The notes below the pieces were generated by a model. The model saw only the letters and a program-made list of their open reading frames with translations. It was not told the DNA's origin and did no database searches. This document shows positions 27,261 to 43,405 of a stretch of 50,713 nucleotides of DNA, piece by piece (the first letter of the stretch is position 1; the number at the start of each line of letters is the position of its first letter). The DNA is from Gammaproteobacteria bacterium (GTDB lineage Bacteria > Pseudomonadota > Gammaproteobacteria > Pseudomonadales > Azotimanducaceae): assembly GCA_028821125.1 (NCBI GenBank), contig JAPPHD010000012.1, forward strand, positions 1 through 50,713. Direction: 5' to 3'. The position numbers and the translations under genes were made by a program.

Positions 27261-27469
27261 ATTCTAGTGTCCTGTGTCACAAATACGCTACCTTTCAGCG
27301 TGCCGCACAAGGGCTGTGGGCAGGCGCGGCCCGCCGGGCATATCGAGTATATGGCCAAGGGTCGCAACACCCCCACAGCCCTTGTGCGGCGCGCCCTTCG
27401 GGAGGGTGCAAAACCGCCGAGGGCAAGGCGCGGGCGGACGGACAAGCCCGGTGACACTTGTTATTCTAG
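27261..27469. repeat. Nested inverted-repeat element flanked by 7-bp direct repeats
   Basis: ATTCTAG occurs at 27261-27267 and 27463-27469, like a target-site duplication. Inside, GTGTCAC (27274-27280) pairs with GTGACAC (27451-27457), a perfect 19-bp arm at 27302-27320 pairs with 27372-27390, and CATAT (27339-27343) pairs with ATATG (27349-27353) at the tip. No protein is encoded. It fills the gap between nudC and the RND adaptor gene and looks like a MITE- or REP-type element. It may donate promoter elements: TAGAAT is read from both flanks. Confidence 0.7.
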
Positions 27470-27543
27470 GGCTATCTCCAACCACTGGCGCCACGCTGAT
27501 CCGGTCTTTCGTCGCCCAATTTAACTCCTTTACCTTCAATATC

Positions 27544-28662
27544 TTGCGATCTGTACTTCAACTCGTCTGCATCATCGCACTCAATGCAGGCTGCGACCGT
27601 TCGCCGGCAGATTCCGCCCCTGAACGCAAGGGTCGCGACAGCATCGATCCCGTGGCGTCTGCGCTGGTCACTCCGGTGCATGTGCGGGTGCGGCCCGCAT
27701 CGGTGGCCGATATCGGCCGGCAGGCGACCGCCGCCGGCGTCGTGGAGGCATTCCGCACCGCCACGGTTGCAGCGGAGACGAACGGCCGGGTGGTGTCCCG
27801 GTCGGTGGAGCCGGGCGACCCGGTGCGGGCCGGCCAGGTGCTCGTCGGGCTGGACAGGGAACGGGCGCTGATCGCGCGTGACCAGGCGGCGGCCCGGGTG
27901 CGCTCGCGCGAGGTCGATCTCGAACAGGCGGGAAACGAGTTGCAGCGCGGGCGCGACCTCCACGCTCGGGAGTTCATCAGCGAGGATGCCCTGGAGGACC
28001 TGGGTTTCGCTGCAGCCCGTGCGCAGTCCGCGCTGGAAGCCGCACGAGCCGACCTGGCCGCTGCCGAGCGGGTGCTGAAGGACACGGAGGTGCGCGCTCC
28101 GTTCACGGGCATCGCCGAAACGGTGCACGTGCACGAGGGCGACTACCTGAATCCCGGCACACCGGTCGTGACGCTCGCCGACTTTTCCAGGGTGCGGATC
28201 AAGGCCGGCGTGACCGCCCGGGAAGCGGTATTGCTCCGGGGTGCCGAGCGTGCCGAACTGACCATCGACGCATTCGGTGCGGAAACGTTCAACGGCCGGA
28301 TCAACAGCCTGGCCCGCGTTTCCGACATCGCCACGGGTACCTTCGCGTTGGAGATCTGGCTGGACAGCCTGCCCGGCGATCTGCCCGAACGCCTCCGGGA
28401 AGGCATGCTCGCCACGGTCTACCTGCCCTACCCCAATGCATCCGCCCCGCTCACGGTACCGAGCGCTGCGGTGTTCCGGCGCGGCGGCGCCATGCACGTT
28501 TTCGTGGTGAACGCCGGCCGCGCCCTGCTTACGCCGGTCAGCACGGGGCGCACGAACGGCCCCACTGTCGAGGTGCTCGGCGGGCTGGCGGAGGGAGACC
28601 TGGTGGTGACCGACGGCCAGTTTGCACTCCGCGACGGCGCCCGGGTAACCGTCGAAGACTGA
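27544..28662 (+). CDS. RND efflux periplasmic adaptor lipoprotein (membrane fusion protein)
   Basis: A 372-residue adaptor. I chose TTG 27544 because it gives a short lipoprotein signal ending in the lipobox LNAGC; no ATG fits, and the open frame further left runs into the repeat element. The chain shows the biotinyl-lipoyl halves (VVSRSVEPGDPVRAGQVLVG and VRAPFTGIAETVHVHEGDYL), a coiled hairpin between (about 95-150), then beta-barrel and membrane-proximal parts. It links the inner-membrane pump to an outer-membrane channel. The pump gene follows after four bases; no TolC-like gene is present here. Confidence 0.85.
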   Translation: MRSVLQLVCIIALNAGCDRSPADSAPERKGRDSIDPVASALVTPVHVRVRPASVADIGRQATAAGVVEAFRTATVAAETNGRVVSRSVEPGDPVRAGQVLVGLDRERALIARDQAAARVRSREVDLEQAGNELQRGRDLHAREFISEDALEDLGFAAARAQSALEAARADLAAAERVLKDTEVRAPFTGIAETVHVHEGDYLNPGTPVVTLADFSRVRIKAGVTAREAVLLRGAERAELTIDAFGAETFNGRINSLARVSDIATGTFALEIWLDSLPGDLPERLREGMLATVYLPYPNASAPLTVPSAAVFRRGGAMHVFVVNAGRALLTPVSTGRTNGPTVEVLGGLAEGDLVVTDGQFALRDGARVTVED

Positions 28663-28666
28663 GCCC

Positions 28667-31600
28667 ATGGAATCCATACTGCGCTTCTTCATCGAGCGCC
28701 ACCTGCTGGTCAACATCATTGCCGGATCGCTGGTCGTTCTCGGCTACCTGTCCGCCACCGGCCTGAACCGCGAGTTCGTTCCCGCCATCAAGTCACCGCT
28801 GATCTTCATCACGGCCAACCTGCCCGGGGCAAGCGCCCGGGACATGGAAACGAAGATCACCATCCCCATCGAGGAGGCGCTCGAGGGCCTGGACGGAATC
28901 GACTATTTCACGACCATCGTTTCCGACAACACCTCCTACACGTCGGTAAGGCTGTACGACGATTACGACACCGCCGAAGTCGAGGCCGCCGAAACGGACC
29001 TGCGCGCGGCGGTGGACCGCATCACGGACTTCCCCGACGAAATGGAGGACGAGCCGGTTTTCGAGCAGCTCAATCCGGGGCGTTTCATCGTGATCGAGGT
29101 CATGCTCTCGGGCCCCGAGCCCGAGCTGAGCCGAACCGCGGAAGACCTGGAGAACCGGCTGGAGCGGCTGGACCTGGTGGGCGACGTGGTTGCGGTGGGC
29201 CTCGCCGATCCCGAGGTGCGCGTGCTGATCGACCCGGTGCTGGCCAGGGAACACGGTGTCACGCTCCTGGACGTGATCGCCGCCGTGCAGCGCCGCAACG
29301 TCTCGAGTACGGGCGGCATACTCGAAAGCCCCTCGGACCGCCGCCAGGTGGTGATGTGGAGCCGTTTCGAAGACCCCGCCGAGGTTGGGGAGACGATCCT
29401 GCGCTTCCGTCCCGGCGCCGGCGCCCTGCACATCCGGGACATCGCCCGCATCGAAAGGAGCCGCGAGGACACCGGCCTGATCGTGCACGCCAACGGCCGG
29501 CGGGGGGTCTCGCTACTGGTGAAGAAACGCGAGGCCGCGGACATCATCGACACCGTCGAGCAGGTGCGGGCCGCCCTTGCGGCGGCGCCCGTTCCCGACA
29601 GCATCGAGATGGCCCCGATCGGCGACGAGTCCGTCATGATTTCCAACCGGCTGGAACTGATGTTCACCAATGGCCTGATCGGGCTGGTGCTGGTCACCGT
29701 GGTGCTGTTCCTGTTCGTCCGGCCGGCTCCGGCCCTGTGGATACTGGTGGGCATTCCCGTCGTCTTCATGGCCGCGCTGACGCTGGTGGGCCCTTTCGGC
29801 ATGACGCTCAACCTGATGGCGCTGACCGGGTTCATCGTGGTGCTGGGCATGGTGGTCGACGATGCGGTGGTCGTCTCCGAGCGTATCGCCCTCAAACATG
29901 CCCAGGGCCTGCCGCCGCAGGAGGCGGCGCTGGCGGGCACCCGGGAGATGCTGGCTCCGGTGACCGCCGCGGCGCTGACCACCATGCTGGCTTTCCTCCC
30001 GCTGACCGTGCTCGGCGGTCTGCCCGGCAAGATCATCTGGCAGATTCCCGCCGTGGTGGTGCTGGTGCTGCTGTTCTCCCTGTTCGAGTCGTTCTTCATT
30101 CTGCCGGCCCACCAGTCGACCCTCAGCGCCCGGGCGAACCTCGAGAAACGCCGCTTCATGCTCGTTCTCGAAGCGCGCTACCGGCGAGCCGTGCAATGGG
30201 TGCTGGCGCACCGCCTGACGACCCTGGCGACCGCCCTGGCCGTGTTTGCCGTCATCATGGTGTTCGTACGGCCGATGGTTCCGTTCGTGCTGTTTCCCCA
30301 ACAGGACGCAGACCGCCTGATGATCAAGGTCACAACACCCCCGGGCACCTCCCTCGAACAGACCGAAGCTGTCGCCAGCGACCTGGCGGCTCAGCTTCTC
30401 GAGATCACGGCAGACGATATCGAGGCGATTACCAGCCGCATCGGTCACCAGAACACGGACGCCCTCGAGAAGGGCTTCGGCGAAGCGGACAACGAGGCGC
30501 TGCTGATCCTCCAGTTCCGCCGCTGGCCGCGCAGCTACACCAATGCGCAATGGATCGAACTCCTGCCGGACTCGCTCCGGGTTCCGGGCAACGTGCGCGT
30601 GCTGTACCAGTCCGAGTACTTCGGCCCGCCCACGGATCTTCCGGTTACCGTGCACGTACTCTCCAACGACGACGAGGTCCGGCGCGGCGTGGCATTCGAG
30701 ATCGAGCGCTACCTGCAGGCCACGCCCGGCGTCATCGAGGTGCAGGTGGACGAGCGGCCCGGCACCCCCCAGCTCGAACTGAACCTGAACTACGAGAAAC
30801 TGGCGTTGCGCGGCCTGGATCCGGAAACCGTCGGGCAGACCCTGGCCGCCGCCTTCTACGGCATCGAGGCGAGCGAGCATCGCGACCTGGACAACACCAC
30901 CGAACTGCGGGTGCAGTTCGACCCCGCCGCGCGGGGCGACCTCGACGCGCTGCTCGAGGTGCCGGTGCGCTCCGCCACGGGCGAACTGGTGCGCCTGCGC
31001 GATGTGGTCGAGCCCATCGAGGTCCCCTCCCTGACCCGCATCTATCACCGGGACGGCTACCGGGCCGCCACCGTTCGCGCCAGTTTCCTGGAATCGAGCG
31101 GGCTTACGCCCCTGAGCTTCGCCGCGCGGATGGAGGCGGAGCTGTTCCCCCGATTCGAGCGGATTCCGGGGCTCTTCGTATTCAACGGCGGCGAGGCGGT
31201 CGAAACGCAGAAGACCACGGCGCGCATGGGCGTCGCGGCCCTTCTGGCCGTGGTGGGCATCGCCCTGGTCATCTGGCTCATGCTGGGCTCGCTGCTCGAG
31301 GCACTGTTCGTGATGCTGGTGATACCGCTGGCCGTGGCCGGGGTTTTCCTGGTCTTCTTCCTGCACGGCAAGCCCATGACCGTGTTCGCCATGCTCGGCG
31401 CCATCGGCCTCGCGGGCATCGTCGTCAACGGCTCCATCGTCATGGTGGATTCGATCCACCGCAGCCTGCAGGGGACCGCTGAGTCCGCCCGCGGCGAGGC
31501 GGCCGAACGCATGGTCGGCGCGGTGGTGGAGCGGCTGCGGCCCATCATGGTGACCACGCTGACCACCCTCGGCGGCGTACTGCCGAGCGCCTACGGCATC

Positions 31601-31771
31601 GGCGGCTACGATCCGATCGTCAGCATCGTCTCGCTGGCCATCGGATGGGGCCTTGCGGTGTCGACGCTGGTCACCCTGTTCCTGGTGCCCGTTCTCTATT
31701 CCCTGGCAGGAGACCTGCGGCGGCTGACGTCCCGCGCAGTTGCGGGCCCGTCCCGTACGCGAGCGCGCTGA
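28667..31771 (+). CDS. RND efflux pump, inner-membrane permease
   Basis: A 1034-residue transporter of full family length. An N-terminal membrane helix (LLVNIIAGSLVVLGYLSATG) is followed by a large periplasmic loop, a cluster of helices from about 330 including the proton-relay GMVVDDAVVVSERIAL with its paired Asp, a second loop and a final cluster (MLGAIGLAGIVVNGSIVMVDSI). It is driven by the proton gradient and, with the adaptor upstream, expels small hydrophobic molecules or lipids. The sequence resembles the HAE1/MdtB-like group only loosely, so the substrate is unknown. Confidence 0.9.
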   Translation: MESILRFFIERHLLVNIIAGSLVVLGYLSATGLNREFVPAIKSPLIFITANLPGASARDMETKITIPIEEALEGLDGIDYFTTIVSDNTSYTSVRLYDDYDTAEVEAAETDLRAAVDRITDFPDEMEDEPVFEQLNPGRFIVIEVMLSGPEPELSRTAEDLENRLERLDLVGDVVAVGLADPEVRVLIDPVLAREHGVTLLDVIAAVQRRNVSSTGGILESPSDRRQVVMWSRFEDPAEVGETILRFRPGAGALHIRDIARIERSREDTGLIVHANGRRGVSLLVKKREAADIIDTVEQVRAALAAAPVPDSIEMAPIGDESVMISNRLELMFTNGLIGLVLVTVVLFLFVRPAPALWILVGIPVVFMAALTLVGPFGMTLNLMALTGFIVVLGMVVDDAVVVSERIALKHAQGLPPQEAALAGTREMLAPVTAAALTTMLAFLPLTVLGGLPGKIIWQIPAVVVLVLLFSLFESFFILPAHQSTLSARANLEKRRFMLVLEARYRRAVQWVLAHRLTTLATALAVFAVIMVFVRPMVPFVLFPQQDADRLMIKVTTPPGTSLEQTEAVASDLAAQLLEITADDIEAITSRIGHQNTDALEKGFGEADNEALLILQFRRWPRSYTNAQWIELLPDSLRVPGNVRVLYQSEYFGPPTDLPVTVHVLSNDDEVRRGVAFEIERYLQATPGVIEVQVDERPGTPQLELNLNYEKLALRGLDPETVGQTLAAAFYGIEASEHRDLDNTTELRVQFDPAARGDLDALLEVPVRSATGELVRLRDVVEPIEVPSLTRIYHRDGYRAATVRASFLESSGLTPLSFAARMEAELFPRFERIPGLFVFNGGEAVETQKTTARMGVAALLAVVGIALVIWLMLGSLLEALFVMLVIPLAVAGVFLVFFLHGKPMTVFAMLGAIGLAGIVVNGSIVMVDSIHRSLQGTAESARGEAAERMVGAVVERLRPIMVTTLTTLGGVLPSAYGIGGYDPIVSIVSLAIGWGLAVSTLVTLFLVPVLYSLAGDLRRLTSRAVAGPSRTRAR

Positions 31772-31940
31772 CGCGCAAAGCCTGTCGGCAGGCGCCGCCG
31801 TTCAGTCCCATCCCGTGTGCGCGCACCGACGACAAACCCACGCCGGCAGGATCCGGGCCAAGGTTCCAGCGCTCGCCTGCAAGCCGTTTCCATGGTTAGA
31901 TGCGCGGTTTCGCCAATCAACCCACGAGGAGCACCCCCGC

Positions 31941-32354
31941 ATGATCAGCAGTGGACCCATCGAGGACCGGCTCGCCATCCGCGAACTGGTGGATTCCTAC
32001 AACGACGCCGTCATGCGCTTCGACGGCGATGCCTGGCAGGCCAACTGGCGCGATGACGCCGTCTGGTCGTTGCCCGGCGCGGGCCCCATCGCCGGCAAGG
32101 AGAACTTCTACCCGATCTGGCAACAGGCCATGGCCGGCTTTTCCTTCGTGGGATTCTTCGCATCCGCCGGGCCCATCGTCGTTGACGGAGACACGGCTCA
32201 CGGAACCTGGTACCAGCAGGAAGTGCTGCACCAGAAGGACGGCGGCAAGCGCTACGTGACGGGCCGCTACGAAGACGATTACGTCAAGGTGGACGGGCGC
32301 TGGTATTTCCAGAAACGGGACTACAGCATTCTCAATTCCGAAGAGACGGCCTGA
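31941..32354 (+). CDS. SnoaL-like domain protein
   Basis: A 137-residue NTF2-like protein of the SnoaL_4 type, starting at ATG 31941 after an ACGAGGAGC ribosome-binding site. IEDRLAIRELVDSYNDAVMRFD is the standard first helix, WQANWRDDAVWSLPG the first strand with the usual Trp/Asp, and DGRWYFQKRDYSIL the last. Such proteins serve as hydroxysteroid isomerase-like or dehydratase-like enzymes. No signal peptide, unlike the SnoaL-like protein near the left end. The SDR gene follows on the same strand after 171 bases containing only GC-rich palindromes. Confidence 0.75.
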   Translation: MISSGPIEDRLAIRELVDSYNDAVMRFDGDAWQANWRDDAVWSLPGAGPIAGKENFYPIWQQAMAGFSFVGFFASAGPIVVDGDTAHGTWYQQEVLHQKDGGKRYVTGRYEDDYVKVDGRWYFQKRDYSILNSEETA

Positions 32355-32525
32355 CACGGCCGCACCGAACGGCAGGGGTTTCGGGCAGGAGATTGCGCTC
32401 GCCGACCCATTGCGGTGTTCCGGCCCGCTCCTGTGCCCGGCGCCGGGCCGGCGCCCGGTCGGCGACCAACCCAAACCGGTCCATCGCCCTGCAGAAAGGG
32501 AACCCGGACTTTGAAGGAGACCCAC

Positions 32526-33299
32526 ATGAACATGCTTGAACGCTTCCGCCTCGACGGCAAGGTCGCGGTAGTCACCGGCGGCGGGCGCGGCATCGGCCGC
32601 GGCATCGCGCTTGCGCTTGCCGATTGCGGGGCCGATGTCGCGGTCGTGGCCCGGCGCCTGCACGACGTGGAGGCCGTGGCGGGTGAGATCGAGGAACGCG
32701 GCCGGCGCGGGCTGGGCCTGTCGGCGGACGTGATGGATTTCGAGTCCATTCCCAAGGTGCTCGACCGGGTGGTCGAGGAATTCGGCGGCCTGGACATCAT
32801 GGTGAACAACGCCGGCGGCAACCTGGACCGCAAGATGTACTCCCTGCCCGAGATTTCCCTCGCCAAGTTCGACGAGCAGCTCGCGCTCAACATGAAAACC
32901 AAGTGGTGGGGTTCCCAGCAGGCCGCAAAACGCATGCAGAACGGCGGGCGCATCATCAACATCATTTCCATCGCCGCGCACAGGCCCACTCCGGGTTTCG
33001 GCGTTTACTCCGCCGCCAACATGGGAATGATCAGCATGACCCGCACGCTGGCCGTGGAACTCGCACCGAAGGGCATCACCGTGAACTGCATCGCCCCCGG
33101 CGTGATCGTCACGGAAATGCTGGTGGAGACGATGAAGATCTCCGAAGAGCAAGCGATTGCCGCCATGGCGCCGCAGATTCCGCTCGGGCGTACCGGCACG
33201 CCGGAAGACTGCGCCGCCGCCGCCGTGTTCTTCGCCTCCCCCGCCGCGGAGTGGACGACCGGGCAGTTCATCGACGTGGCCGGCGGCCAGCCCACCTGA
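32526..33299 (+). CDS. SDR family protein with Asn replacing the catalytic Lys
   Basis: A 257-residue classical SDR, with TGGGRGIG cofactor loop (17-24), NNAG (94-97), Ser148 and Tyr161 at the normal 13-residue spacing, and a complete C-terminal IAPGVIVTEM and GQFIDVAGG. The active-site motif reads YSAAN rather than YxxxK: codon AAC at 33018-33020 gives Asn165 where Lys lowers the Tyr pKa. The fold is intact and the rest well conserved, so it may work with altered chemistry, or as a non-catalytic partner. A GGAG ribosome-binding site precedes the ATG. Confidence 0.85.
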   Translation: MNMLERFRLDGKVAVVTGGGRGIGRGIALALADCGADVAVVARRLHDVEAVAGEIEERGRRGLGLSADVMDFESIPKVLDRVVEEFGGLDIMVNNAGGNLDRKMYSLPEISLAKFDEQLALNMKTKWWGSQQAAKRMQNGGRIINIISIAAHRPTPGFGVYSAANMGMISMTRTLAVELAPKGITVNCIAPGVIVTEMLVETMKISEEQAIAAMAPQIPLGRTGTPEDCAAAAVFFASPAAEWTTGQFIDVAGGQPT

Positions 33300-33324
33300 T
33301 GCGGGCGGACGGGCGAGAATCGCA

Positions 33325-34164
33325 ATGAACGGGACCAATGTCCTGATCGTCAGCAAGGGGCACGACTTCGACCACAACGCCTTTCTCGCCATGTTCGACG
33401 GCATGGGGGGCGTGACGGCCACCCTCGTTCAGCAGCCCGCGGCCCAAGTGCTGCTCCGGCCGGATAACGCAGGGGTTTACGATGCCGTGCTCTTCTACGA
33501 CATGTCCGGCATCCCGGGCATCGGGCTCCTGCACGACGGCGCCAACGATACCGGCGTTCCACCGGAGGGTTACCGGGCCGGCATCGAGGCGCTCCTGGAT
33601 CGGGGAACCGGGCTGGTGCTGCTCAACCACGCCACGGTCTCCTGGCCGCTCTGGCCGCTCTGGCGGAAGATCACCGGCTCGTCATTCATGCTGCAGGCCG
33701 GCGAACTCGACGGTGCCGAAGTGCCCGGCTCCGGCTATCGAGGGGGTCATGGGCCGCATCCGAATCCGACGTTGCGCCTGGTGCCGCAATGCGAGCACCC
33801 GGTGCTCGAAGGGCTCGAGAACGGGTTCGAGATCACCGACGAGATCTATCTCAAGACATCCGGATTCGAAAACGGCGTCACGCCGCTCCTGCGCGGCGAT
33901 TACGACTTCAAGGCAGAGAACTTCACGCCGCCCCCGCTGGCGCCGCCCGACGAGCAGGCGGCCTGGAACCACCCGCCCGGCAGTGACCTGATCGTCTGGG
34001 CCAACCGCGCCGGGTCGAGCCCGGTCGTCGCCTCGGACGTGGGAGACAGTCCCGCCGCGTTCGACAATCCCGGTTTTCGGCGGCTGCTGGGGAATGCGCT
34101 CAGATGGGTGTCGTCTCAAGAAGCCAGGAACTGGGCCCGGGACGGCAACGACAAAAACACCTGA
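33325..34164 (+). CDS. ThuA-like domain protein
   Basis: A 279-residue protein resembling the ThuA (trehalose utilisation) family, a class I glutamine amidotransferase-like fold that lacks the catalytic Cys. Strand and loop patterns include VLIVSKGHDFDHNAFLAMFD at the start, YDAVLFYDMSG (about 50-60), GTGLVLLNHATVSW and a late PVVASDVGDS. ThuA proteins are linked to sugar oxidation but many have no known role. It begins 25 bases after the SDR stop, so the two may be cotranscribed. No signal peptide. Confidence 0.65.
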   Translation: MNGTNVLIVSKGHDFDHNAFLAMFDGMGGVTATLVQQPAAQVLLRPDNAGVYDAVLFYDMSGIPGIGLLHDGANDTGVPPEGYRAGIEALLDRGTGLVLLNHATVSWPLWPLWRKITGSSFMLQAGELDGAEVPGSGYRGGHGPHPNPTLRLVPQCEHPVLEGLENGFEITDEIYLKTSGFENGVTPLLRGDYDFKAENFTPPPLAPPDEQAAWNHPPGSDLIVWANRAGSSPVVASDVGDSPAAFDNPGFRRLLGNALRWVSSQEARNWARDGNDKNT

Positions 34165-34201
34165 AACGCATCTGTAACCGCAACCGGCGGGCGATTTCGC
34201 G

Positions 34202-34217
34202 CGTGGTTTACTCCACG
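34202..34217 (+). terminator. Hairpin in a convergent gap, possible terminator
   Basis: CGTGG (34202-34206) pairs with CCACG (34213-34217) over a TTTACT loop, 38 bases after the ThuA-like stop and facing the MaoC-like gene. No T-run; weak. Confidence 0.25.
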
Positions 34218-34296
34218 TGGCTCCTCGGGCTCGAGCCGCCGCGTGTCGGGCGGAATGAGTGATGCCGCCACCGGGTACCAAATCCCGTGTTTGGCG

Positions 34297-34749
34297 TTAC
34301 CGGCCCGGAACAGCGTTTCGCCTCCTCACCAGCAGGGTCACTTCCTGGGTCAGCACAACGGCCCCCCGGTCGTCGGTGACCCGGTCCGCAAGGGTGACGA
34401 TCCCCGCATCCCCGCGGCTGCCCGACTCGCGCTTGCCGATACAGCGCGTCTCGTAGATGAGCACCCGCCCCGCCCGGGCCGGGTTCGGCAGGCGCAGCTT
34501 GTCCTTGCCGAGCAGGGCGATGGCCTGAATGCGGTCTTCGTGATCGGTGAAGAGCCGCGAACAGATTGCAAAGAGGTGCGCGGACGAGGCTACGAGACCG
34601 CCGAATATCGACTCCGCGGCCGCGACGGGGTCCGTATGGGCGGGCTGCGGATCCCAGGCGGTGGCGAACTCGATTACCGCGGCTTCGGTGAGCGGGAAGC
34701 TCCCCACCACGCTGTGGTAATCGTCGGGTATGTCTTCGAAGAAACGCAT
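34297..34749 (-). CDS. MaoC-like hot-dog domain protein
   Basis: A 150-residue protein beginning MRFFEDIPDDYHSVVGSFPL, the standard opening of MaoC-type (R)-hydratase-like proteins, which decided the start at ATG 34749 over one at 34803. The catalytic segment is weak: FATAWDPQPAHTDP corresponds to the usual FxxxxDxNPxHxD, keeping Asp and His, and GGLVASSAHLFAI to the following hot-dog helix. It should hydrate or dehydrate enoyl-CoA-type substrates. Divergent from the selenoprotein gene, sharing an 82-base spacer. Confidence 0.75.
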   Translation of the reverse strand: MRFFEDIPDDYHSVVGSFPLTEAAVIEFATAWDPQPAHTDPVAAAESIFGGLVASSAHLFAICSRLFTDHEDRIQAIALLGKDKLRLPNPARAGRVLIYETRCIGKRESGSRGDAGIVTLADRVTDDRGAVVLTQEVTLLVRRRNAVPGR

Positions 34750-34831
34750 TCGAGTGCGTCGCCGGTTGCCGCCGCGAAGTTGCCTGAAAACCTGCGCTAT
34801 CATACCCGCCGCCCCTCAAGGAGTACCGACC

Positions 34832-35359
34832 ATGCTCGAGTTCCACGACCCGCGCGCGGCGATCGGCGTCGAGCGCGAACCCTACGGCCTCGGAATCGAC
34901 CTCATGCGCATGAACGACCCGTGCATGGCGTTCCTGGCCAACGGTTTTCCCGATTCCGAGCGCTTCCTCGAAAAAGTGGCTGAAGCCATGGAGCGACTGT
35001 TGCCGCGCCTGACCGTGCGCACCTACAACAAGGGCAACGCATCCATCCCCGCGCCGCCGGAGATGCTCGAAGAGATCGGCGAGAACTGTCATGCGGCGAT
35101 TGCCGCCTACGGCCACTGAGGCAGTTGCACCACCGGCACCGTGCGTGACGGCATTGCAATCGCCCGGCTGGGCATTCCGGCGGTATCGCTGGTCACCGAA
35201 GACTTCTGGCCTCAGGGCGACTTCGTGGCGGAGTCCCTGGGCATGCCCGATGCGCCTCGGCTACGCCTGCCGCATCCTGTCGCCGGTACCGGCGAGGCGA
35301 ATCTGAGCGCCGTGGCCGAAGCCATCGCCCCGAAAATCGTCGAGGCGCTGGCCCACTGA
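34832..35359 (+). CDS. UGSC-family selenoprotein (in-frame TGA read as selenocysteine)
   Basis: The reading frame from ATG 34832 (AAGGAG at 34818-34823) reaches TGA at 35117-35119 after ...AAIAAYGH, then continues without shift as GSCTTGTVRDGIAIARLGIP to a TGA at 35357-35359. Read through, it gives 175 residues with selenocysteine at position 96 in the motif U-G-S-C. The parts on both sides match one family, named UGSC after this motif: FLANGFPDSERFLEKVAEA before it and VSLVTEDF, LGMPDAPRLRLPHPV after it. A SECIS-like hairpin follows the TGA. Sec and Cys two residues apart suggest a redox centre; the reaction is unknown. Standard annotation would report only a 95-residue stub. sel genes are not in the window. 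Confidence 0.85.
35124..35160 (+). promoter_or_regulatory. Candidate bacterial SECIS hairpin
   Basis: Pairs: GTTGCA (35124-35129) with TGCAAT (35155-35160), including one G-U; CCG (35133-35135) with CGG (35149-35151); a G-A mismatch; CAC (35137-35139) with GTG (35145-35147). The apical loop is CGUGC (35140-35144), containing GU, 21-25 bases after the UGA. Bacterial SECIS elements recognised by SelB place a GU-bearing loop about 16-37 bases downstream, so the geometry fits. Confidence 0.6.
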
Positions 35360-35441
35360 TTTGTGGGTAGAGGTTGCCGATTGAGCCAGGTTCGCACCGC
35401 CGCGGCGCTGCGTCATCGTGCTGCGGCACTGACTGGTTGAC

Positions 35442-36521
35442 GTGTTGACCGGCCTGTTGCAAGCGGTCGACGAAGCGGCCGCGGTGGAACGCCTGCACGA
35501 CCTGGAGTGCACCGACGGGCTGCCCGTCATCGTGCCCACCGAAGCACGGGTCGCACGCATGGCGCTGGCCGCCGGTCTCGACCGCGACCTCGTTCTCGGC
35601 CGGATGGGGCCGGCCGGAGGGATCGCCACGGTCGAGAAAGTCGCGGTTGCCGCTGTCATGGCCGGCTGTCTACCGGACCATATGCCGGTGGTCATCGCCG
35701 CCGTGCGGGCCGTCCTCGACCCCCGGTTCGATCTCACCGAAATGCAATCCACCACTCACTGCACGGCGCCCCTGATCGTCGTCAATGGCCCGGCCCGGCA
35801 GTGGTGCGGGCCCATCGCCTCCGGCTTCGGCGCCTTGGGGCCCGGACACCGCGCCAATGCCTGCATCGGCCGGGCGCTCAGGCTCGCCATGATCAACATC
35901 GGCGGCGGGCGGCCCGGAACGTCGGATATGGCGTTGCTCGGGCACCCCGGCAAGTTCACCTACTGTCTTGCCGAGGACGAAGAGGCGAGCCCGTTTCAGC
36001 CCCTGCACGTCCACAGCGGATTCGAGGCCGATGAGAGCGTGGTGACGGTGATCGGCGCGGAGGCGCCGCATTCGGTGCTTTTCAGCGGATCCGGTGACGA
36101 CCCGGAACGTCATGAGAGATTTCTGGAAATACTGGCTATCGGACTGGCCAACCTGGCGACCAACAACGCCGGGCTCAGGGGCGGCGCGGCGGTGGTCGTG
36201 CTGAATCCGGAACACGCCGCCATCCTGGCGGGCGCCGGCCTGTCCCGTGTTCAGGTTGCCGAACGCCTCTGTGCGCTTGCGAGCCATCCGGTGGCGGAGC
36301 TTGCGCGCTATGAGCCGGCATTCGCGGGCAAGCCGGGAACGCGGGAACGATTGCCCTGTTTCGACCGTCCAAGCGATATTGTGATGCTGACCGCCGGCGG
36401 TGCGGGGCTGTATTCCATGGTCATGCCCACCTGGTGCGCCGGGCCGCACAGGAACCGCGCCGTGCAGGTCAGGATCGACACGGACCAGGTCTGCGAGGTA
36501 CCCGGTGCGGACTCCGGTTGA
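35442..36521 (+). CDS. Conserved protein of unknown function, neighbour of the UGSC selenoprotein
   Basis: A 359-residue soluble protein that I do not recognise. It starts from GTG 35442 with no clear ribosome-binding site, so the start is uncertain. Conserved-looking segments include TEMQSTTHCTAPLIVVNGPA, CGPIASGFGALGPGHRANAC and IGRALRLAMINIGGG, with several cysteines and histidines that could bind metal or form a redox site, and TAGGAGLYSMVMPTW near the end. It lies 82 bases after the selenoprotein on the same strand and 15 bases before a P450, so it is probably cotranscribed and may act with one of them. The 35360-35441 gap shows nothing. Confidence 0.6.
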   Translation: MLTGLLQAVDEAAAVERLHDLECTDGLPVIVPTEARVARMALAAGLDRDLVLGRMGPAGGIATVEKVAVAAVMAGCLPDHMPVVIAAVRAVLDPRFDLTEMQSTTHCTAPLIVVNGPARQWCGPIASGFGALGPGHRANACIGRALRLAMINIGGGRPGTSDMALLGHPGKFTYCLAEDEEASPFQPLHVHSGFEADESVVTVIGAEAPHSVLFSGSGDDPERHERFLEILAIGLANLATNNAGLRGGAAVVVLNPEHAAILAGAGLSRVQVAERLCALASHPVAELARYEPAFAGKPGTRERLPCFDRPSDIVMLTAGGAGLYSMVMPTWCAGPHRNRAVQVRIDTDQVCEVPGADSG

Positions 36522-36536
36522 ACCGTCGGCAAGCCG

Positions 36537-37757
36537 ATGAGTGAAACAGCGCTTGCCCCGGAGTCGGATATCGAGGGATTCAGCCTCGAATGCCCACCGC
36601 CCGGATTCGTCCGGGACCCGTTTCCATGGTATGCCGCGCTCCGGGAACGGCGGCCCGTACATCGCCTTGGCGACGGCTCCTGGCTCCTGACGAGGCACGC
36701 GGATTGCGTTGCCGTCTATCAGGGCAGTACGTTCAGTTCCGACAAGCACGATTTCTTCCGCCCGAAATTCGGCGATTCCCCGCTCTACGAGCACCACACC
36801 ACCAGCCTGGTGTTCAACGATCCCCCCTACCACACGCGGGTTCGGGAGACCCTGGTCAACGCGCTCAAACCGAAGAACATCCAGCCCGCGGTGGCCGCCC
36901 TGGAACACTTCGTCACCGAGCGCATCGCCAGCTTGCGGGAACGCCGGGAATTCGACGCGATCGAGCACTTCGCGGCCGCCGTGCCGGTGGAGATCATCTG
37001 CATCCTGCTGTCGGTTCCGGCCTCGGAGCGCGCTCATCTCAGGCGCTGGTCGCTGGCCATTCTCGGCGCGCTCGAGCCCGCGATCTCGCCGGAGCAGGCG
37101 CGCATCGGCAACGAGGCCGTGGGGGAGTTCATGGCCTACCTGCGCGAACTCATCGCCTACCGGAGGCGGCGGCCGGCGCCTGAGCGCTACAACGTGCTGA
37201 GGTCACTGGTGCGGCAGGCGGACGGCGGCGATCTCAGCGAAGCGGAACTCCTGCATAACTGCATCTTCCTGCTGAACGCCGGGCACGAGACCACCACGAA
37301 CCTGATCGGCAACGGCATTCACATGCTTGCCCTTTACGGCGATGCTCGGCGGCGGCTGCGAGAACATCCGGCATCGATCCGCCAGGCCGTGGAAGAGATT
37401 CTCCGGTATCAGAGCCCGGTGCAATTGGGGAACCGACAGGTCACCGCGCCCGTCACCATCGGCGGGCGCGACTTGCGGCCCGGAGACCAGATCACGCTCT
37501 GCATCGGCGGCGCCAACCGCGACCCGCGCGCCTTTGCCGACCCGGAGACCCTCAACATCGACCGTACGCCGAACCGTCACCTCGCCTTCGCGGCAGGTAT
37601 CCACCAATGTGCCGGCATGTCACTTGCCCGCATCGAGGGCCGAATCGCCCTGGGCGCGTTTTTCGAAGCATTCGACGCACCGGAAATCCGCGTCGATCCC
37701 GCCTACCATCCCAGGCTCAGGTTCCGCGGTTTGAAAGCACTCGAGATGCGCGTATGA
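36537..37757 (+). CDS. Cytochrome P450, second copy in the window
   Basis: A 406-residue soluble P450. The heme loop [10 protein letters not shown] (351-360) has Cys358, the I-helix carries AGHETTTN with the Asp/Glu-Thr pair as Glu-Thr, and ExxR is in [12 protein letters not shown]. It is a different subfamily from the P450 at 7322-8602 (AGHETT versus GGLDT). The 3' end overlaps hmgA by four bases (ATGA), so the two are translationally coupled, which is unusual and suggests an aromatic or tyrosine-linked substrate. No ferredoxin is adjacent; the one at 9524 may serve both. Confidence 0.9.
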
Positions 37758-39049
37758 AAACGGCCTACCTGAACGGTTTCGGCAACGAGCATGAGTCCGA
37801 AGCGCTGCCCGGCGCCCTGCCCCGCGGCCGATTCAGCCCTCAACGGCCCGCCTACGGGCTCTACGCCGAGCAGTTCAGCACAACGGCCTTCACCGTGCCG
37901 CGCGCCACCAACCGGCGCACCTGGTTCTACCGTATCCGCCCGTCGGTGCTCCAGGGTGGCTATCGGCCCATCCCTCACGATCGGCTGAAAACGGCGCCGT
38001 TAGCCGGACGGAATCCGCCGCCGGACCCACTGCGCTGGGACCCCCTGGAGATTCCGGACAAACCCGCGGACTTCATCGATGGCCTCGTAACCCTGGCGGC
38101 CAACGGCGACTGCGCCGGCCACACGGGCATTGGCGTCCACGTCTACCTGGCCAACCGTTCCATGGCCGACCGTCATTTCTGCAACGCCGACGGCGAGCTG
38201 CTGCTGGTGCCCCAACTCGGCGAGCTGATCCTGCACACGGAATGCGGCGTGCTGGAGGCGGGCCCCGGCGCCATCGCCGTTCTGCCGAGAGGCATGAAAT
38301 TCCGTGTTGAACTGGCTGCGAAACAAGCCCGGGGTTACCTCTGCGAAAACTACGGCGCGCCTTTCGAACTCCCGGAACGCGGACCCGTAGGTGCGAACGG
38401 CTACGCCAACGACCGCGACTTCGAGTACCCGGCCGCGGCATTCGAGGACCGGAAAGGATCGTTCGAACTCATCACCAAGTTCGCCGGCAACCTGTTCGCC
38501 ACCGAACTCGACCACTCGCCACTGGACGTGGTGGCCTGGACCGGCAATTCCGCGCCCTATCGCTACGACCTGGCGCGTTTCAACGTGATCGGATCGGTCA
38601 GCTTCGACCACCCCGACCCGAGCATAAATACCGTACTGACCTCCCCCTCTCCCGCGCCGGGCACAGCCAACGCGGATTTCGTGATCTTCCCGCCACGCTG
38701 GACCGTCGCGGAGAACACCTTCCGGCCGCCCTGGTATCACCGCAACGTGATGAGCGAATTCATGGGCCTGGTGCGGGGCGTCTACGACGGCAAGGCGGAG
38801 GGTTTCCTGCCGGGCGGCGCGAGCCTGCACAACAGCATGACCCCGCACGGCCCGGATACGGCAACCTTCGAAGCCGCCAGCCGCGCGCAACTCAAGCCCA
38901 GATACCTCGAAGACACCCTGGCATTCATGTTCGAGTCGTCACGCGTCATAGAACCCACCCCGTTCGCGCTCACCACCCAAGCCCGCCAGACAGACTACGC
39001 CGATTGCTGGCGGGATCTGAAAAAAAGGTTCTCCGGCCCCGCCAAGTAA
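37754..39049 (+). CDS. hmgA: Homogentisate 1,2-dioxygenase
   Basis: A 431-residue enzyme opening the ring of homogentisate to maleylacetoacetate in tyrosine and phenylalanine breakdown. Family hallmarks run throughout: [19 protein letters not shown] at the N-terminus, [11 protein letters not shown], and the iron ligands in [15 protein letters not shown] (His and Glu) and [12 protein letters not shown] (His). Length is normal. hmgB/hmgC (fumarylacetoacetase, maleylacetoacetate isomerase) are not beside it, and the gene is coupled to a P450 instead. Immediately after its stop lies a repeat-bounded palindromic element that could end transcription. Confidence 0.95.
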
Positions 39050-39324
39050 AATCAAAGGGTTACACATTGTTCCATGCAAGTTCCCAACCCGCCCCGCCGG
39101 GACGCTGACGTTGAAGGAACAACACCTGGTTTCGGGAAAGAGTTCGTATGCGGCGCTTCCCTTTCGGCGCGTTAAGCTCGTCTGAGATCCTTGAATGCAG
39201 CAGGATGATGTGGCCGTGCGCCGAAAGGGAAGCGCCGTATGCGAACTCGCTGGTGAGATTGAAGATATTATGTTAAATAGAAATTTTTTTAAAATCAAAG
39301 GTTTGCGATTTGTTCCATGCAAGT
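39048..39324. repeat. Palindromic element bounded by 34-bp direct repeats
   Basis: Direct repeats AAAATCAAAGG...GTTCCATGCAAGT lie at 39048-39081 and 39291-39324 (29 of 34 identical). Between them, 39140-39171 and 39217-39248 form 32-bp inverted arms around a 45-base loop. The three differences between the arms all become G-U pairs in RNA from the plus strand, so that RNA would pair fully. The loop has a minor hairpin (ATCCT/AGGAT). An AT-rich stretch lies inside the right repeat. No coding content. It fills the space between convergent hmgA and the FMN-binding gene. Confidence 0.75.
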
Positions 39325-39338
39325 ACACCGGCGGAGCT

Positions 39339-39767
39339 TCAGGCTTCGTCGGCGAGCCCCCGAATCACCCCGTACGTACGTAGCGGCCGGATGCGCAGAA
39401 TGACCCGCCCTTCCTGCTCGAGCCATCCTTCGAGGTCTTCCGGTTCCTGATAGGGCGTGTCCCTTATGGCGGCAAACACCAGTTTCGTCGCGGGCACCAG
39501 ATCGTTCCGCTCGATGCTGCAGCACCCTTCCACGGCGACGAAATCGAACGGTTCCCGGCCGCTCAGAATGCAGAGATTGACCCGCTCGTCCCGGGCAATG
39601 GAGTCGTGCTTGAAGGTCGCAGCCCGGGTACTGACCACCAGTTCGTCACCGTCCGCCGCGTAGGCCACCAGCGAACTGACCGGCGCCCCGGTGCGCCTCA
39701 GGCTCGTCAGTACCGCCCACCGGTGCTCCCTGATGAACGCCTCCCAGGCGGGATCGCTCGAGATCAA
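39339..39767 (-). CDS. Pyridoxamine 5'-phosphate oxidase-like (PPOX, F420/FMN) protein
   Basis: A 142-residue split-barrel protein of the PPOX class. [20 protein letters not shown] is the first strand pair with the conserved substrate-side pattern, [20 protein letters not shown] the cofactor-binding turn, and [15 protein letters not shown] the last strands. Members bind FMN, F420 or heme and reduce small molecules. The start is TTG 39767, overlapping the ihfB stop as TTGA, so it is translated by coupling to ihfB. This position is usually held by lapA in related bacteria. Confidence 0.7.
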
Positions 39768-40075
39768 GCGCCGCCCCGCGCCCGATCGCGCGGCATGCCG
39801 GCATTCACCCGCTCGCGCAGGTTCTTGCCGGGCTTGAAGTGGGGAACGTACTTGCCGGAAAGGCCCACGGACTCACCCGTCTTGGGGTTGCGCCCGATCC
39901 GCGGGGCCCGGTAGTGCAGCGAAAAGCTCCCGAATCCGCGGATCTCAATGCGCCTGCCCTGCGCCAGGGTCTGGGACATGTGCTCGATCATCGTCTTGAC
40001 GGCCAGCTCGATGTCGCGCACGGGAAGCTGCGCCTGGGTGGCGCCGATCTTTTCGATAAGCTCGGACTTGGTCAT
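39764..40075 (-). CDS. ihfB: Integration host factor subunit beta
   Basis: A 103-residue DNA-bending protein of the HU/IHF family. [11 protein letters not shown] and [20 protein letters not shown] form the dimer body, [20 protein letters not shown] carries the DNA-intercalating Pro arm, and [13 protein letters not shown] the end. The eight-residue basic tail ([10 protein letters not shown]) is longer than usual. IhfB pairs with IhfA in nucleoid shaping, replication and recombination. It follows rpsA after 11 bases, the conserved gammaproteobacterial order. Confidence 0.95.
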
Positions 40076-40086
40076 CGCGTTGGTTT

Positions 40087-41799
40087 TCAGCCCTCTTTTT
40101 CGTCGTCGTTCTGTCGATCGCGCTGGCGGTTGCCCATCTGCGCCTTGATCAGGTCGCCGAGCGTGCTCGAACCCGCGCGCGTGCCTTCCTGCTTCCGGTG
40201 CTCCTTGACGGCCTTGCGTTCCTCGTCGATCTGCCTGGCCTTGATGGAAAGCCCGATCACGCGATTCTTGCGGTCGATGCTGATGATCTTCACGTCGAGT
40301 TCCTGCCCTTCAGACAGTTCCTTGCGCGCGTCCTCCACCCGGTCGAAGCCGATTTCGGACGCTTTCAGAACGCCGATGACATCTTCCGCGAGCCTCACCT
40401 CCGCTTCCTTGGGTTCCAGGGTCATCACCACGCCCTTGACGGTGGAACCGCGCTCGTTGGCGGCCACGTAGTCGGTGAACGCATCCTGGTCGAGCTGCTT
40501 GATGCCGAGCGAAATGCGCTCGCGATCCGGGTCGATGGACAGGATGACCGTCTCGATCTCCTCGCCCTTGCTGTAGCGCCGCACCGCCGTCTCGCCGGAC
40601 TCCTTCCAGGACACGTCGGAGAGGTGCACCAGGCCGTCGATGTCGCCTTCGAGCCCGATGAAGATGCCGAAATCCGTAATTGACTTGATGGTGCCGGTGA
40701 CGCGCTCGCCCTTCTTGTGGTTGACGGCGAATTCTTCCCAGGGATTGGGCCGGCACTGCTTGATGCCGAGCGAAATCCGCCGCCGCTCCTCGTCGATGTC
40801 GAGCACCATCACTTCCACCTCGTCACCGGCGGTGACCACCTTCGAGGGATGGATGTTCTTGTTGGTCCAGTCCATCTCGGAGACATGGACAAGGCCTTCC
40901 ACGCCCTCCTCGATTTCCGCGAAGCACCCGTAGTCGGTGAGGTTGGTTACCGTGGACATCACCCGGGACCCTTCCGGGTAGCGCCGCGTCAGTTCCACCC
41001 AGGGGTCGTCGCCGAGCTGCTTCATGCCCAGGCTCACCCGGTTCTTCTCCCGGTCGAACTTGAGGATGCGCACCTCCACCTCATCGCCGACGTTGACCAT
41101 CTCGCTGGGATGGCGGATGCGCCGCCAGGCCATGTCGGTGATGTGCAGCAGGCCGTCGACCCCGCCGAGGTCGACGAACGCGCCGTAATCGGTGAGATTC
41201 TTGACGATGCCCTTGAGCGTCTGCCCTTCCTCGAGGGAGGCCAGCAGTGCCTCCCGCTCTTCGCTGTTCTCCTGTTCGAGCACCGCGCGCCGGGAAACCA
41301 CGACGTTGTTACGCTTCTGGTCGAGCTTGATGACCTTGAATTCCAGGGGCTTGCCTTCGAGATGCGTCGTCTCGCGCAACGGCCGGATATCCACCAGGGA
41401 ACCGGGCAGAAAGGTGCGGATGTCGCTGATGTCGACGGTGAAACCGCCCTTCACCTTGCCGTTGATGACGCCGGAAACCACCTCGTTGTTCGAGAAGGCT
41501 CCCTCGAGCATCTGCCAGGACTCCGCCCGGCGGGCCTTCTCGCGCGACATGCGGGTCTCGCCGCTGCCGTCGTCGACGATTTCCATGACAACCTTGACCT
41601 GGTCGCCGATGGCCAGGCTGAAATCCCCGGTGTCGTTCAGAAACTGGCTCTTGGGGATGTTTCCTTCCGATTTGAGACCGGCGTGAACGACAACCCGTTC
41701 GTTGTCTATGTCCACCACCGTTCCGGTGACGATGGAACCGGGTTCCATCTCTATGGTTTCAAGGCTCTCCTCAAACAGCTCCGCAAAACTTTCGCTCAT
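40087..41799 (-). CDS. rpsA: 30S ribosomal protein S1
   Basis: A 570-residue protein with six S1/OB-fold repeats; repeats 3-6 are recognisable from [40 protein letters not shown] and similar lines, each with VKGxV..DYGAFVDL-type strands. S1 unwinds mRNA and brings weakly bound messages to the 30S subunit. The start has AGGAG at good spacing. The 108-base leader folds into three hairpins, as in E. coli, where S1 represses its own translation. Cotranscribed with ihfB and probably with cmk upstream. Confidence 0.97.
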
Positions 41800-41818
41800 C
41801 TAGTGGCAATCTCCTGTC

Positions 41819-41880
41819 GCCGCGGTGGCCGGCGCGGCCTCAACGTGCGACAACTCCTGGTTGCACGGGCCTTGCGGCCC
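41819..41880 (-). promoter_or_regulatory. rpsA leader with three hairpins
   Basis: In the transcript direction: GGGCC-GCAA-GGCCC with a GNRA tetraloop (41880-41867); then a 7-bp stem GUG/CAC plus CAAC/GUUG with CAGGA in the loop (41866-41845); then GCCGCG/CGCGGC (41838-41819), just before the AGGAG. This resembles the structured, GGA-loop leader used for S1 autoregulation in enterobacteria. Confidence 0.5.
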
Positions 41881-41907
41881 ATTGGTTGACGTCATGCGCG
41901 GCGCCGC

Positions 41908-42594
41908 TCATCGATCAAGGCCACGCTCGCGCACCAGCGCCAGCGCTTGCCCGAGCACCTCGTCGAGGTTCATGGCCGTGCTGTCGATGACGACGGCATC
42001 CCCGGCCGGTTTCAACGGTGCGGCAGCGCGCTCCCTGTCTCGCGCATCCCGTTCGTGGATGCCGACGAGAAGGGCGCGAAAACTAACATTCAAGCCTTTG
42101 TTTTTCAACTGTTTATTACGGCGCTCCGCGCGAACCTCCGGGTTCGCGTCCAGATAGATTTTCAATGGCGCGTCCGGGAACACCACCGTTCCCATGTCGC
42201 GGCCGTCGGCAACCAGGCCCGGCGGCCGCCGCGCCGCGCGCTGGCGGGAAAGGATGGCGCTGCGCAATTCCGGGTAGGCGGCGATGGTGGATGCGGCGGC
42301 GCCCACCGGCTCCGAACGTATGTCCGGGCCGGGCGCTTCGCCGGAAACGGCGGGGTCGGCGTCCTCGAAACGGAAGTCGAGGCGCGCCGCCAACCCGGCA
42401 AGCGCTTCCCGGTCTTCCAGGCTCATGCCCCGTTCAAGCGCCGCGGCAGCGACGAGCCGATAGAGCGCGCCGCTGTCGAGGTGGCGCCACTGGAGCGAGT
42501 CCGCGAGGAGCGCGGCCAGGGTGCTCTTGCCCGACCCGCCAGGACCGTCCACGCAGATGACCGGCGCGGCCGGATCGCCGCCGTCAGGCGCCAT
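41908..42594 (-). CDS. cmk: Cytidylate kinase
   Basis: A 228-residue CMP/dCMP kinase from ATG 42594. The frame is open a little further upstream, but that part lies in the tyrA-like gene. Residues 12-24 (VICVDGPGGSGKS) are the P-loop, LDSGALYR the CMP-binding segment, and VADGRDMGTVVFPDAPLKIY the family signature. It makes CDP for nucleotide synthesis. It overlaps the preceding tyrA-like gene by 11 bases. The position before rpsA is the standard one. Confidence 0.95.
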   Translation of the reverse strand: MAPDGGDPAAPVICVDGPGGSGKSTLAALLADSLQWRHLDSGALYRLVAAAALERGMSLEDREALAGLAARLDFRFEDADPAVSGEAPGPDIRSEPVGAAASTIAAYPELRSAILSRQRAARRPPGLVADGRDMGTVVFPDAPLKIYLDANPEVRAERRNKQLKNKGLNVSFRALLVGIHERDARDRERAAAPLKPAGDAVVIDSTAMNLDEVLGQALALVRERGLDR

Positions 42595-43405
42595 CGAACT
42601 CGCGGCGACGATTCGCCGCCGATTCGAGCAGGGTGCGAACCGCCTCGGTGTCGTCACGGCGAATGGCGGTCTCCAGCTCCCTGATCTCGTGCCGGCAGGC
42701 CTTGAGAGCTGCCATCAGCGGCGCCTTGTTGAGCCTGAATATCTGCTCCCAAAGCGTCGGGCTCGATGCCGCGATGCGGGTGAAATCGCGGAAGCCGCCT
42801 CCCGCAAGAGACAGCATGGACGGCTCCACGCCATTCATGTAGGCGAACGAAAGCAAGTGCGGGAGGTGGCTGGTAACCGCGAGGATCCGGTCATGTTCCT
42901 CGACGGTCATTGTCCGCACATGTGCGCCGACCGCCCGCCACATGACCTGTACCACGCCGGTCGCCGACGCGTCCGTTTCCGGCTCCGGTGTCAGAATCAC
43001 GGTCTGATCGTGAAACAGGTCGATCTCCGCCTCTTCGGGACCGCTGCGTTCGGAACCGCAGACCGGATGTGACGGCACATAACGCGGCGGCAGGCTCTTG
43101 AGCCTGTGACGCACTGCCTTGACGATGGGCTGCTTGACGCTCGCCACATCGAACACCACCCCCGGATGATCGGCGAGGTCGCACACCCAGGACGCCACCT
43201 GATCGCTCGGCGGCGCCAGCAGTACCGCCGCGGCATCGTCCGGCACCCGATCCACGGCAGCGTCCACCAGGCCCAGATCCAGCGCCTTGCGAGCCCGCGC
43301 CCGGTGCTTGTCAAGGCCCACCACTTCCGCGAACAGGCCGTGATCGGCGGCCGTCCTCGCAAAGGAACACCCGATGAATCCGGTACCGACAATCGCCAGT
43401 TTCAT
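42584..43405 (-). CDS. tyrA: Prephenate/arogenate dehydrogenase
   Basis: A 273-residue NAD-dependent dehydrogenase converting prephenate to 4-hydroxyphenylpyruvate in tyrosine synthesis. MKLAIVGTGFIGCSFARTAA is the Rossmann loop, FDVASVKQPIV and PSHPVCGSERSGPEEA are the prephenate-site segments, and EEHDRILAVTSHLPHLLSFA holds the catalytic His. It is the stand-alone form: neither a chorismate mutase domain nor an aroA domain is fused, whereas many gammaproteobacteria carry a TyrA-AroA fusion or an adjacent aroA here. Located between pheA and cmk. Confidence 0.9.
   Translation of the reverse strand: MKLAIVGTGFIGCSFARTAADHGLFAEVVGLDKHRARARKALDLGLVDAAVDRVPDDAAAVLLAPPSDQVASWVCDLADHPGVVFDVASVKQPIVKAVRHRLKSLPPRYVPSHPVCGSERSGPEEAEIDLFHDQTVILTPEPETDASATGVVQVMWRAVGAHVRTMTVEEHDRILAVTSHLPHLLSFAYMNGVEPSMLSLAGGGFRDFTRIAASSPTLWEQIFRLNKAPLMAALKACRHEIRELETAIRRDDTEAVRTLLESAANRRREFDGA

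What the first reader, a model, noticed from the sequence alone, without database searches (positions are those of the whole stretch)
34832..35359. A UGSC-family selenoprotein hidden behind an in-frame TGA
The frame continues unbroken across TGA 35117-35119, and the next codons give Gly-Ser-Cys. Both halves fit one family, whose name comes from the U-G-S-C motif. A normal annotation would show only a 95-residue stub and miss the C-terminal half. A predicted Sec-(x2)-Cys redox centre in an accessory catabolic setting suggests unexplored redox chemistry.
Basis: partly seen in the sequence, partly recalled or inferred. Interest (0 to 1): 0.85.

Follow-up and report, generated by a model that had tools for sequence, protein, structure and literature searches.

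The report
Selenocysteine protein with an obligate partner
This gene very probably reads through a stop codon to make a selenium-containing protein of a known family whose job is still unknown, and it appears to work together with the undescribed protein encoded next to it.

Summary
ORF 34832-35359 is one UGSC-family (Pfam PF24696) gene with a selenocysteine codon at TGA 35117-35119. Both halves match the family separately; selA, selB, tRNA-Sec and selD are in the genome. Of 96 homologous places in 61 related genomes, 93 hold exactly one in-frame TGA. In 45 relatives, five codons shortly after the TGA are frozen at every synonymous site, as a SECIS element would demand. The family has been in print since at least 2008 without a function, so this is a new member of a known kind.

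What I add: (1) the next ORF (35442-36521, no Pfam/NCBIfam family) is its partner: adjacent or fused in 62 of 62 UGSC loci examined, and both profiles hit the same 5 of 398 phylum genomes. (2) The AlphaFold2 model is flavodoxin-like, not the thioredoxin fold proposed in 2008; the Sec region is probably a distant relative of glycine reductase GrdB. (3) Some partners carry a thioredoxin-like CxxC domain, and one locus has a thioredoxin-reductase-like gene. Best reading: a thioredoxin-fed, Sec-dependent, two-component reductase, substrate unknown. The mechanism is inferred, not shown.

The parts
34818..34823 (+). AAGGAG, ribosome-binding-site-like sequence 8 nt before the ATG
   Evidence: read in the sequence
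34832..35359 (+). UGSC-family selenoprotein gene, 175 residues with Sec96; final stop TGA 35357-35359
   Evidence: PF24696 142.1 bits against cut-off 25; translation; AlphaFold2 model mean pLDDT 93.2
35117..35119 (+). TGA read as selenocysteine 96
35126..35128 (+). TGC, Cys99, the second residue of the Sec-x2-Cys centre
   Evidence: Cys in 58 of 58 distinct rows
35133..35151 (+). SECIS-like segment; codons 102-106 (35135-35149, GGC ACC GTG CGT GAC) are frozen at synonymous sites in relatives
   Evidence: codon entropy; alignment and pair counts; folding energy alone not significant
35442..36521 (+). partner protein, 359 aa (GTG start as listed), no Pfam or NCBIfam family; Cys76 and Cys175 invariant
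   Evidence: beside or fused to UGSC in 62 of 62 loci; same 5 of 398 genomes; model pLDDT 88.6

Best explanation
The locus encodes a two-component selenoenzyme. Supported by sequence: UGA96 is decoded as Sec, and the UGSC protein travels with the neighbouring 359-aa protein. Inferred: Sec96 sits at the N-terminus of a helix after the third strand of a flavodoxin-like domain that is a distant relative of the Sec domain of glycine reductase GrdB. It acts as nucleophile or reductant on a small electrophilic substrate held by, or between it and, the partner. The oxidised centre closes as a Sec96-Cys99 selenenylsulfide (perhaps with help of the partner's invariant Cys76 and Cys175) and is reopened by a thioredoxin-type dithiol, as suggested by the thioredoxin-like domain fused to some partners and by a thioredoxin-reductase-like gene in one locus. 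Substrate unknown. Odds by layer: decoded as Sec 0.97; obligate functional partnership 0.9; thioredoxin-fed reductase mechanism about 0.55.
For: Family match and three paralogues with TGA. Complete Sec machinery. Codons GGC ACC GTG CGT GAC invariant at synonymous sites in 45 distinct genes (44 of 44 for the Arg codon); mean normalised codon entropy 0.33 over 11 conserved columns just after Sec against 0.87 over 55 conserved columns elsewhere, p=2e-4. Partner beside UGSC in 54 of 54 loci (48 downstream, 5 upstream, 1 divergent), fused in L077, L078, L079, beside it in L085-L088 and L090: 62 of 62, 58 distinct pairs. UGSC and partner profiles hit the same 5 of 398 genomes. Three UGSC and three partners in this genome, paired. 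Pairwise distances of the two proteins correlate: r=0.95 over 1653 pairs, 0.71 over the 1043 closer ones. Thioredoxin-like N-terminal domain with CxxC (motif by eye) in four complete partner genes, in L083, L039, L094 and L097; Pfam AhpC-TSA 26.1 and 27.0 bits against 26 for L083 and L039. Gene most like thioredoxin reductase (TIGR01292 168.8 bits, under its cut-off 343) just before UGSC in L090. GrdB relation: hhalign probability 90.5, Sec aligned to Sec, 78 against a GrdB/PrdB-like alignment; one GrdB sequence scores 15.2 bits against at most 7.5 in 2000 shuffles of it and 3.3 in 199 unrelated ORFs; PF24696 hits that GrdB at E 9e-4 (19.8 bits) and TIGR01917 hits the fusion L079 at E 0.0097, both below cut-off.
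Against: No substrate or activity is known. The GrdB relation covers only about 65-95 residues, rests mostly on one GrdB sequence and may partly reflect the shared U-G-x-C-T motif (shuffles do not control for that); the window protein itself has no PF07355 or TIGR01917 hit, and neither protein has a PDB relative by sequence. The partner shows no relation to a GrdE-like protein (hhalign probability 0.1). The window's own partner has no thioredoxin-like domain, and no TrxB-like ORF of window 26001-46000 joined the TrxB cluster. Thioredoxin-domain matches are weak: L097 17.2 bits against 23.5, L094 none. Folding energy of the SECIS segment in the window's subfamily is ordinary, in that subfamily two of the six hairpin pairs do not form, and Rfam has no hit there.
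Confidence: 0.6

Rival explanations
1. UGSC is a stand-alone Sec thiol oxidoreductase or peroxidase of redox defence, and the partner is an accessory such as a chaperone, regulator or storage protein.
For: Sec-x2-Cys is typical of thiol oxidoreductases; the 2008 paper grouped UGSC with thioredoxin-like families (passages); thioredoxin-like domains occur on some partners.
Against: The model is not a thioredoxin fold; an accessory need not be fused, or present wherever UGSC is.
Confidence: 0.25
2. The pair does no redox catalysis on a small molecule: Sec96 and Cys99 bind or hand on a metal or selenium.
For: Some other selenoprotein families are proposed to bind metals (passage of PMC13188914); two invariant Cys in the partner.
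Against: No metal-transport or resistance gene was recognised among the neighbours looked at (only part of these ORFs was scanned); thioredoxin-type context.
Confidence: 0.1
3. The TGA is a true stop and the two halves are a decayed gene or chance.
For: Folding energy just after the TGA is not unusual; no Rfam SECIS hit.
Against: Sec genes present, TGA shared by 93 of 96 homologous places, frozen synonymous sites, both halves conserved.
Confidence: 0.01

Closest known systems
UGSC-containing selenoprotein family (PF24696, NF041046)
   Same: U-G-S-C centre, about 175 aa; published as abundant in aquatic metagenomes (PMC2398784, passages read) and listed in 2026 among selenoproteins whose functions remain largely uncharacterised (PMC13188914, passages read).
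   Different: The window's subfamily scores below NCBI's cut-off of 125 bits: 104.2 for the window, 96.6-113.1 for the seven other members scored.
UGSC/Unknown_1 fusion of the 2008 Global Ocean Sampling paper
   Same: A UGSC protein fused to an unnamed domain with conserved Cys (passage); probably the fused form of the partner described here.
   Different: The supplementary alignment could not be opened, so the identity is assumed; adjacency, co-occurrence and the thioredoxin-like domain are not in the passages I read.
Glycine/sarcosine/betaine reductase selenoprotein B (GrdB, PF07355) and D-proline reductase PrdB (TIGR04483)
   Same: Sec-x2-Cys, the following helix, a GIP-type strand and a PHP-type turn align.
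   Different: UGSC has no PF07355 hit, and the partner shows no relation to a GrdE-like protein.
Flavodoxin-like proteins
   Same: Best PDB matches of the UGSC model are flavodiiron proteins and a flavodoxin.
   Different: TM-score only about 0.46 and 11-14% identity; no sequence relation found.

Membership tests
UGSC family PF24696 | profile match over the curated cut-off | tested here: met
   142.1 bits against 25
UGSC family PF24696 | U/C-G-S-C motif at the conserved column | tested here: met
NCBIfam NF041046 (equivalog) | score over the curated cut-off of 125 bits | tested here: not met
   104.2 bits
Bacterial selenoprotein | selA, selB, selC and selD in the genome | tested here: met
Bacterial selenoprotein | nucleotide-level constraint just after the UGA | tested here: met
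   frozen synonymous sites in 45 relatives
Bacterial selenoprotein | stable SECIS stem-loop just after the UGA | tested here: inconclusive
   hairpin with all or all but one of six pairs in the 11 distant rows, four of six pairs in the window's subfamily; folding energy not significant for the window; no Rfam hit
Bacterial selenoprotein | selenium in the protein product | not testable with these tools
   needs 75Se labelling or mass spectrometry
GrdB/PrdB reductases | PF07355 or TIGR04483 match of the window protein | tested here: not met
   no hit (Pfam to E 10; NCBIfam to E 0.001)
GrdB/PrdB reductases | shared Sec domain (remote homology) | tested here: inconclusive
   hhalign 90.5 and 78; library hits below cut-off
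GrdB/PrdB reductases | pyruvoyl-type GrdE/PrdA partner | tested here: not met
   no profile similarity of the partner to the GrdE-like neighbour of a GrdB gene; that neighbour was called GrdE from its position and a recalled motif
Thioredoxin-fold selenoproteins | thioredoxin fold | tested here: not met
   five-strand alpha/beta model with flavodoxin-like best hits; a prediction, not a solved structure

The most novel reading that the evidence does not exclude
UGSC and its unnamed partner form a new branch of the GrdB/PrdB selenoreductase superfamily that works in aerobe-type bacteria, takes electrons from thioredoxin, and uses a substrate subunit unrelated in sequence to the pyruvoyl proteins, acting on a substrate class not yet known for selenoreductases.
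Probability: 0.4. Interest if true: 0.75.

Novelty: new member of a known kind. Interest (0 to 1): 0.5.

Why it matters
UGSC is among the most abundant selenoprotein families in aquatic metagenomes (255 of 3,506 sequences in the 2008 table), yet its function has been open since at least then. A constant partner, a likely electron source and a likely remote relative turn that question into a defined two-protein enzyme that can be expressed and assayed. The window's subfamily also falls under NCBI's annotation cut-off, so its members are probably truncated or unnamed in databases.

Tried and rejected
Rejected: true stop or pseudogene. Thioredoxin fold. Partner as a class I fumarase, suggested by weak fold hits, not borne out by profile comparison; partner as a GrdE-like protein. 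A second Sec at the final TGA 35357 is thought unlikely: the Pfam match ends at residue 174, and 9 of 62 relatives have TAG or TAA as the first stop at or after the end of the match (53 have TGA, so this is weak).

Led nowhere: Rfam on the window and on six loci gave no UGSC SECIS (in the same run the GrdB locus L102 hit RF01990, a positive control). PDB sequence searches. An alignment of fused and single proteins misplaced the C-terminal halves of single UGSC proteins and was not folded. Folding energy as SECIS evidence failed in the window's subfamily. In one search only one pair shows changes on both sides, which 136 of 500 shuffles also reach, although the covariation score beats all 500. 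CaiB-like (named by eye), fumarase and TrxB-like neighbours may be plain synteny of related genomes.

Rows dropped or not counted: L043 is left out of A1, A2, A4 and A6 but is. L084, L089, L091-L093, L095, L098 were not used as rows; L094, L096, L097 and L099-L101 only. Of the places listed, partner adjacency was checked only for those whose DNA was fetched. L080 and L081, divergent relatives without a TGA, have no partner in the 5.0 and 5.5 kb fetched and are not among the 62. Several of the 62 loci are one gene from two collections, hence 58 distinct pairs. UGSC places were chosen by similarity to the window protein, so more distant branches are under-sampled.

Full report
Observation. The ORF is exactly as described. 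Reading TGA 35117-35119 through gives a 175-residue protein with His-Sec-Gly-Ser-Cys. The part before the TGA matches Pfam UGSC with 35.7 bits, the part after with 85.9, the whole with 142.1 (cut-off 25). NCBIfam NF041046 gives 104.2 bits, under its cut-off of 125. The seven other members of the same subfamily that I scored give 96.6-113.1, also under it; L085, L088 and L090 give 120.4, 120.3 and 113; the fusion L079 and the third copy of this genome (L003) pass with 130.4 and 164.1. Annotation by that cut-off would probably not name the window's subfamily.

Selenocysteine. The genome (5.28 Mb, 193 contigs, 97.3% complete) holds selA, selB and tRNA-Sec close together on contig C142 and selD on C33, all over cut-off. 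It has three UGSC places, each with one in-frame TGA. In 61 genomes of the same taxonomic family, 53 have a match; of 96 places, 93 contain exactly one TGA, two none and one a TAA. Among 58 distinct rows the Sec column is TGA in 56 and Cys in 2, and Cys99 is invariant.

RNA signal. In 45 distinct genes of the window's subfamily, codons 102-106 (GGC ACC GTG CGT GAC) never vary synonymously (45 of 45; 44 of 44 for Arg), whereas conserved residues elsewhere use codons freely: mean normalised codon entropy 0.33 over the 11 conserved columns within 12 codons of Sec against 0.87 over 55 others, p=2e-4. Within those 11, Cys99, Thr100 and Ile108 vary freely, so the freeze is local. In the 11 distant rows the same nucleotides form a hairpin of 5-6 pairs, nt 17-22 with 26-31; in the window's subfamily pairs 18-30 and 19-29 do not form. 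Over 48 distinct rows 72.6% of cells pair, pair 21-27 changes from C-G to G-C in 4 rows, and the covariation score 0.056 exceeds all 500 shuffles; but only one pair shows double changes (136 of 500 shuffles reach that) and a slide of -3 scores 0.051. Folding energy is no better than synonymous recodings in the window's subfamily (mean fraction as good 0.47 over 39 rows) and somewhat better in the distant ones (0.14 over 11). I read the segment as a SECIS; its function is inferred.

The partner. ORF 35442-36521 (359 aa) has no Pfam or NCBIfam family. A relative lies beside UGSC in 54 of 54 loci, the window included: 48 downstream on the same strand, 5 upstream, 1 divergent (L060). It is fused to UGSC in L077, L078 and L079 and adjacent in L085-L088 and L090: 62 of 62 loci, 58 distinct pairs. 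Over 398 genomes of the phylum, UGSC occurs in 5 and the partner in the same 5 (this genome is one of them). This genome has three of each, paired. Distances within the two families correlate (r=0.95 over 1653 pairs; 0.71 over the 1043 closer ones). Cys76 and Cys175 of the partner are invariant in 58 of 58. Two divergent UGSC relatives without TGA, L080 and L081, have no partner in the stretch fetched.

Electron supply. Where the partner stands upstream of UGSC it can carry an N-terminal thioredoxin-like domain with CxxC (motif by eye), seen whole in L083 (this genome's third copy), L039, L094 and L097. Pfam AhpC-TSA gives 26.1 and 27.0 bits against 26 for L083 and L039, Pfam Thioredoxin 17.2 against 23.5 for L097, and L094 has no thioredoxin-family match. 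The upstream partner of L085 shows no such domain. In L090 a gene most like thioredoxin reductase (168.8 bits, under that model's cut-off of 343) precedes UGSC, and two partner genes follow. The window's own partner has no such domain.

Structure and relatives. The AlphaFold2 model of UGSC (mean pLDDT 93.2, Sec given as Cys) is a five-strand alpha/beta domain with residue 96 directly before helix 97-112; the best PDB matches are flavodiiron proteins and a flavodoxin, TM about 0.46, followed by other alpha/beta proteins. [quoted passage not shown] The UGSC profile aligns to one GrdB Sec to Sec (hhalign 90.5; 78 against a GrdB/PrdB-like alignment). That GrdB beats 2000 shuffles of itself and 199 unrelated ORFs. 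Pfam UGSC hits it at E 9e-4, and TIGR01917 hits a UGSC fusion at E 0.0097, both below cut-off. I take remote common descent as likely, not proven. The partner model (pLDDT 88.6, pTM 0.89) has only weak fold matches, class I fumarases and cyclic amide hydrolases with TM under 0.31, and no profile similarity to a fumarase.

Literature. One search found 8 papers that hold both UGSC and selenoprotein. I read passages, not whole texts, of six: PMC2398784, PMC13188914, PMC9312934, PMC7539508, PMC9402790 and PMC5029168. PMC5330540 and PMC7435645 I saw only in the listing. The family, its abundance and a fusion to 'Unknown_1' are in print; adjacency, co-occurrence, the thioredoxin-like domain and the GrdB relation did not appear in the passages I read. 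Supplements could not be opened.

Verdict. The member is new and the kind is known; the two-component reductase mechanism is a testable inference.

Noticed in passing
L076:1477-2196 (G000:C35): The genome also holds a PrdB-like gene with an in-frame TGA in a UPVC motif (168 bits to TIGR04483, under its cut-off of 300); similar genes were read in related genomes.
   Followed up: partly
L080:2421-3041 and L081:2455-3120, minus strand: Divergent UGSC relatives without a TGA, with Ser where Sec would be (aligned by eye), and no partner gene in the stretch fetched.
   Followed up: partly
L087 / L091 (G337:C6): A UGSC gene with Cys in place of Sec that looks broken: its pieces lie in different frames and a TGA stands where relatives have Trp; the neighbouring partner ORF is open.
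   Followed up: no
L022, L025, L027, L028, L031, L032, L033, L035, right after the partner gene: A class I fumarase gene (one of them scanned with Pfam, the others by similarity) directly downstream of the partner in 8 of 22 loci; may be synteny only.
   Followed up: partly
L083:5556-5990 (G000:C189): An F420H2-quinone-reductase-like (deazaflavin-dependent) ORF just before the Trx-partner gene of this genome's third UGSC unit.
   Followed up: no
L043: A contig titled Klebsiella pneumoniae MAG carries a subfamily member otherwise seen here mostly in uncultured Gammaproteobacteria; the title may be wrong.
   Followed up: no
L102:1460-1497 minus strand; L122:6870-8111 minus strand: A GrdB gene with an Rfam SECIS_4 element beside a GrdE-like ORF in a relative of the window's organism.
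   Followed up: partly
window 34297-34803 minus; 36537-37757 plus; 37748-39049 plus: Neighbours of the pair: a MaoC-like hydratase, a cytochrome P450 and a homogentisate dioxygenase; the last two use oxygen, which suggests an aerobic host (inference).
   Followed up: partly
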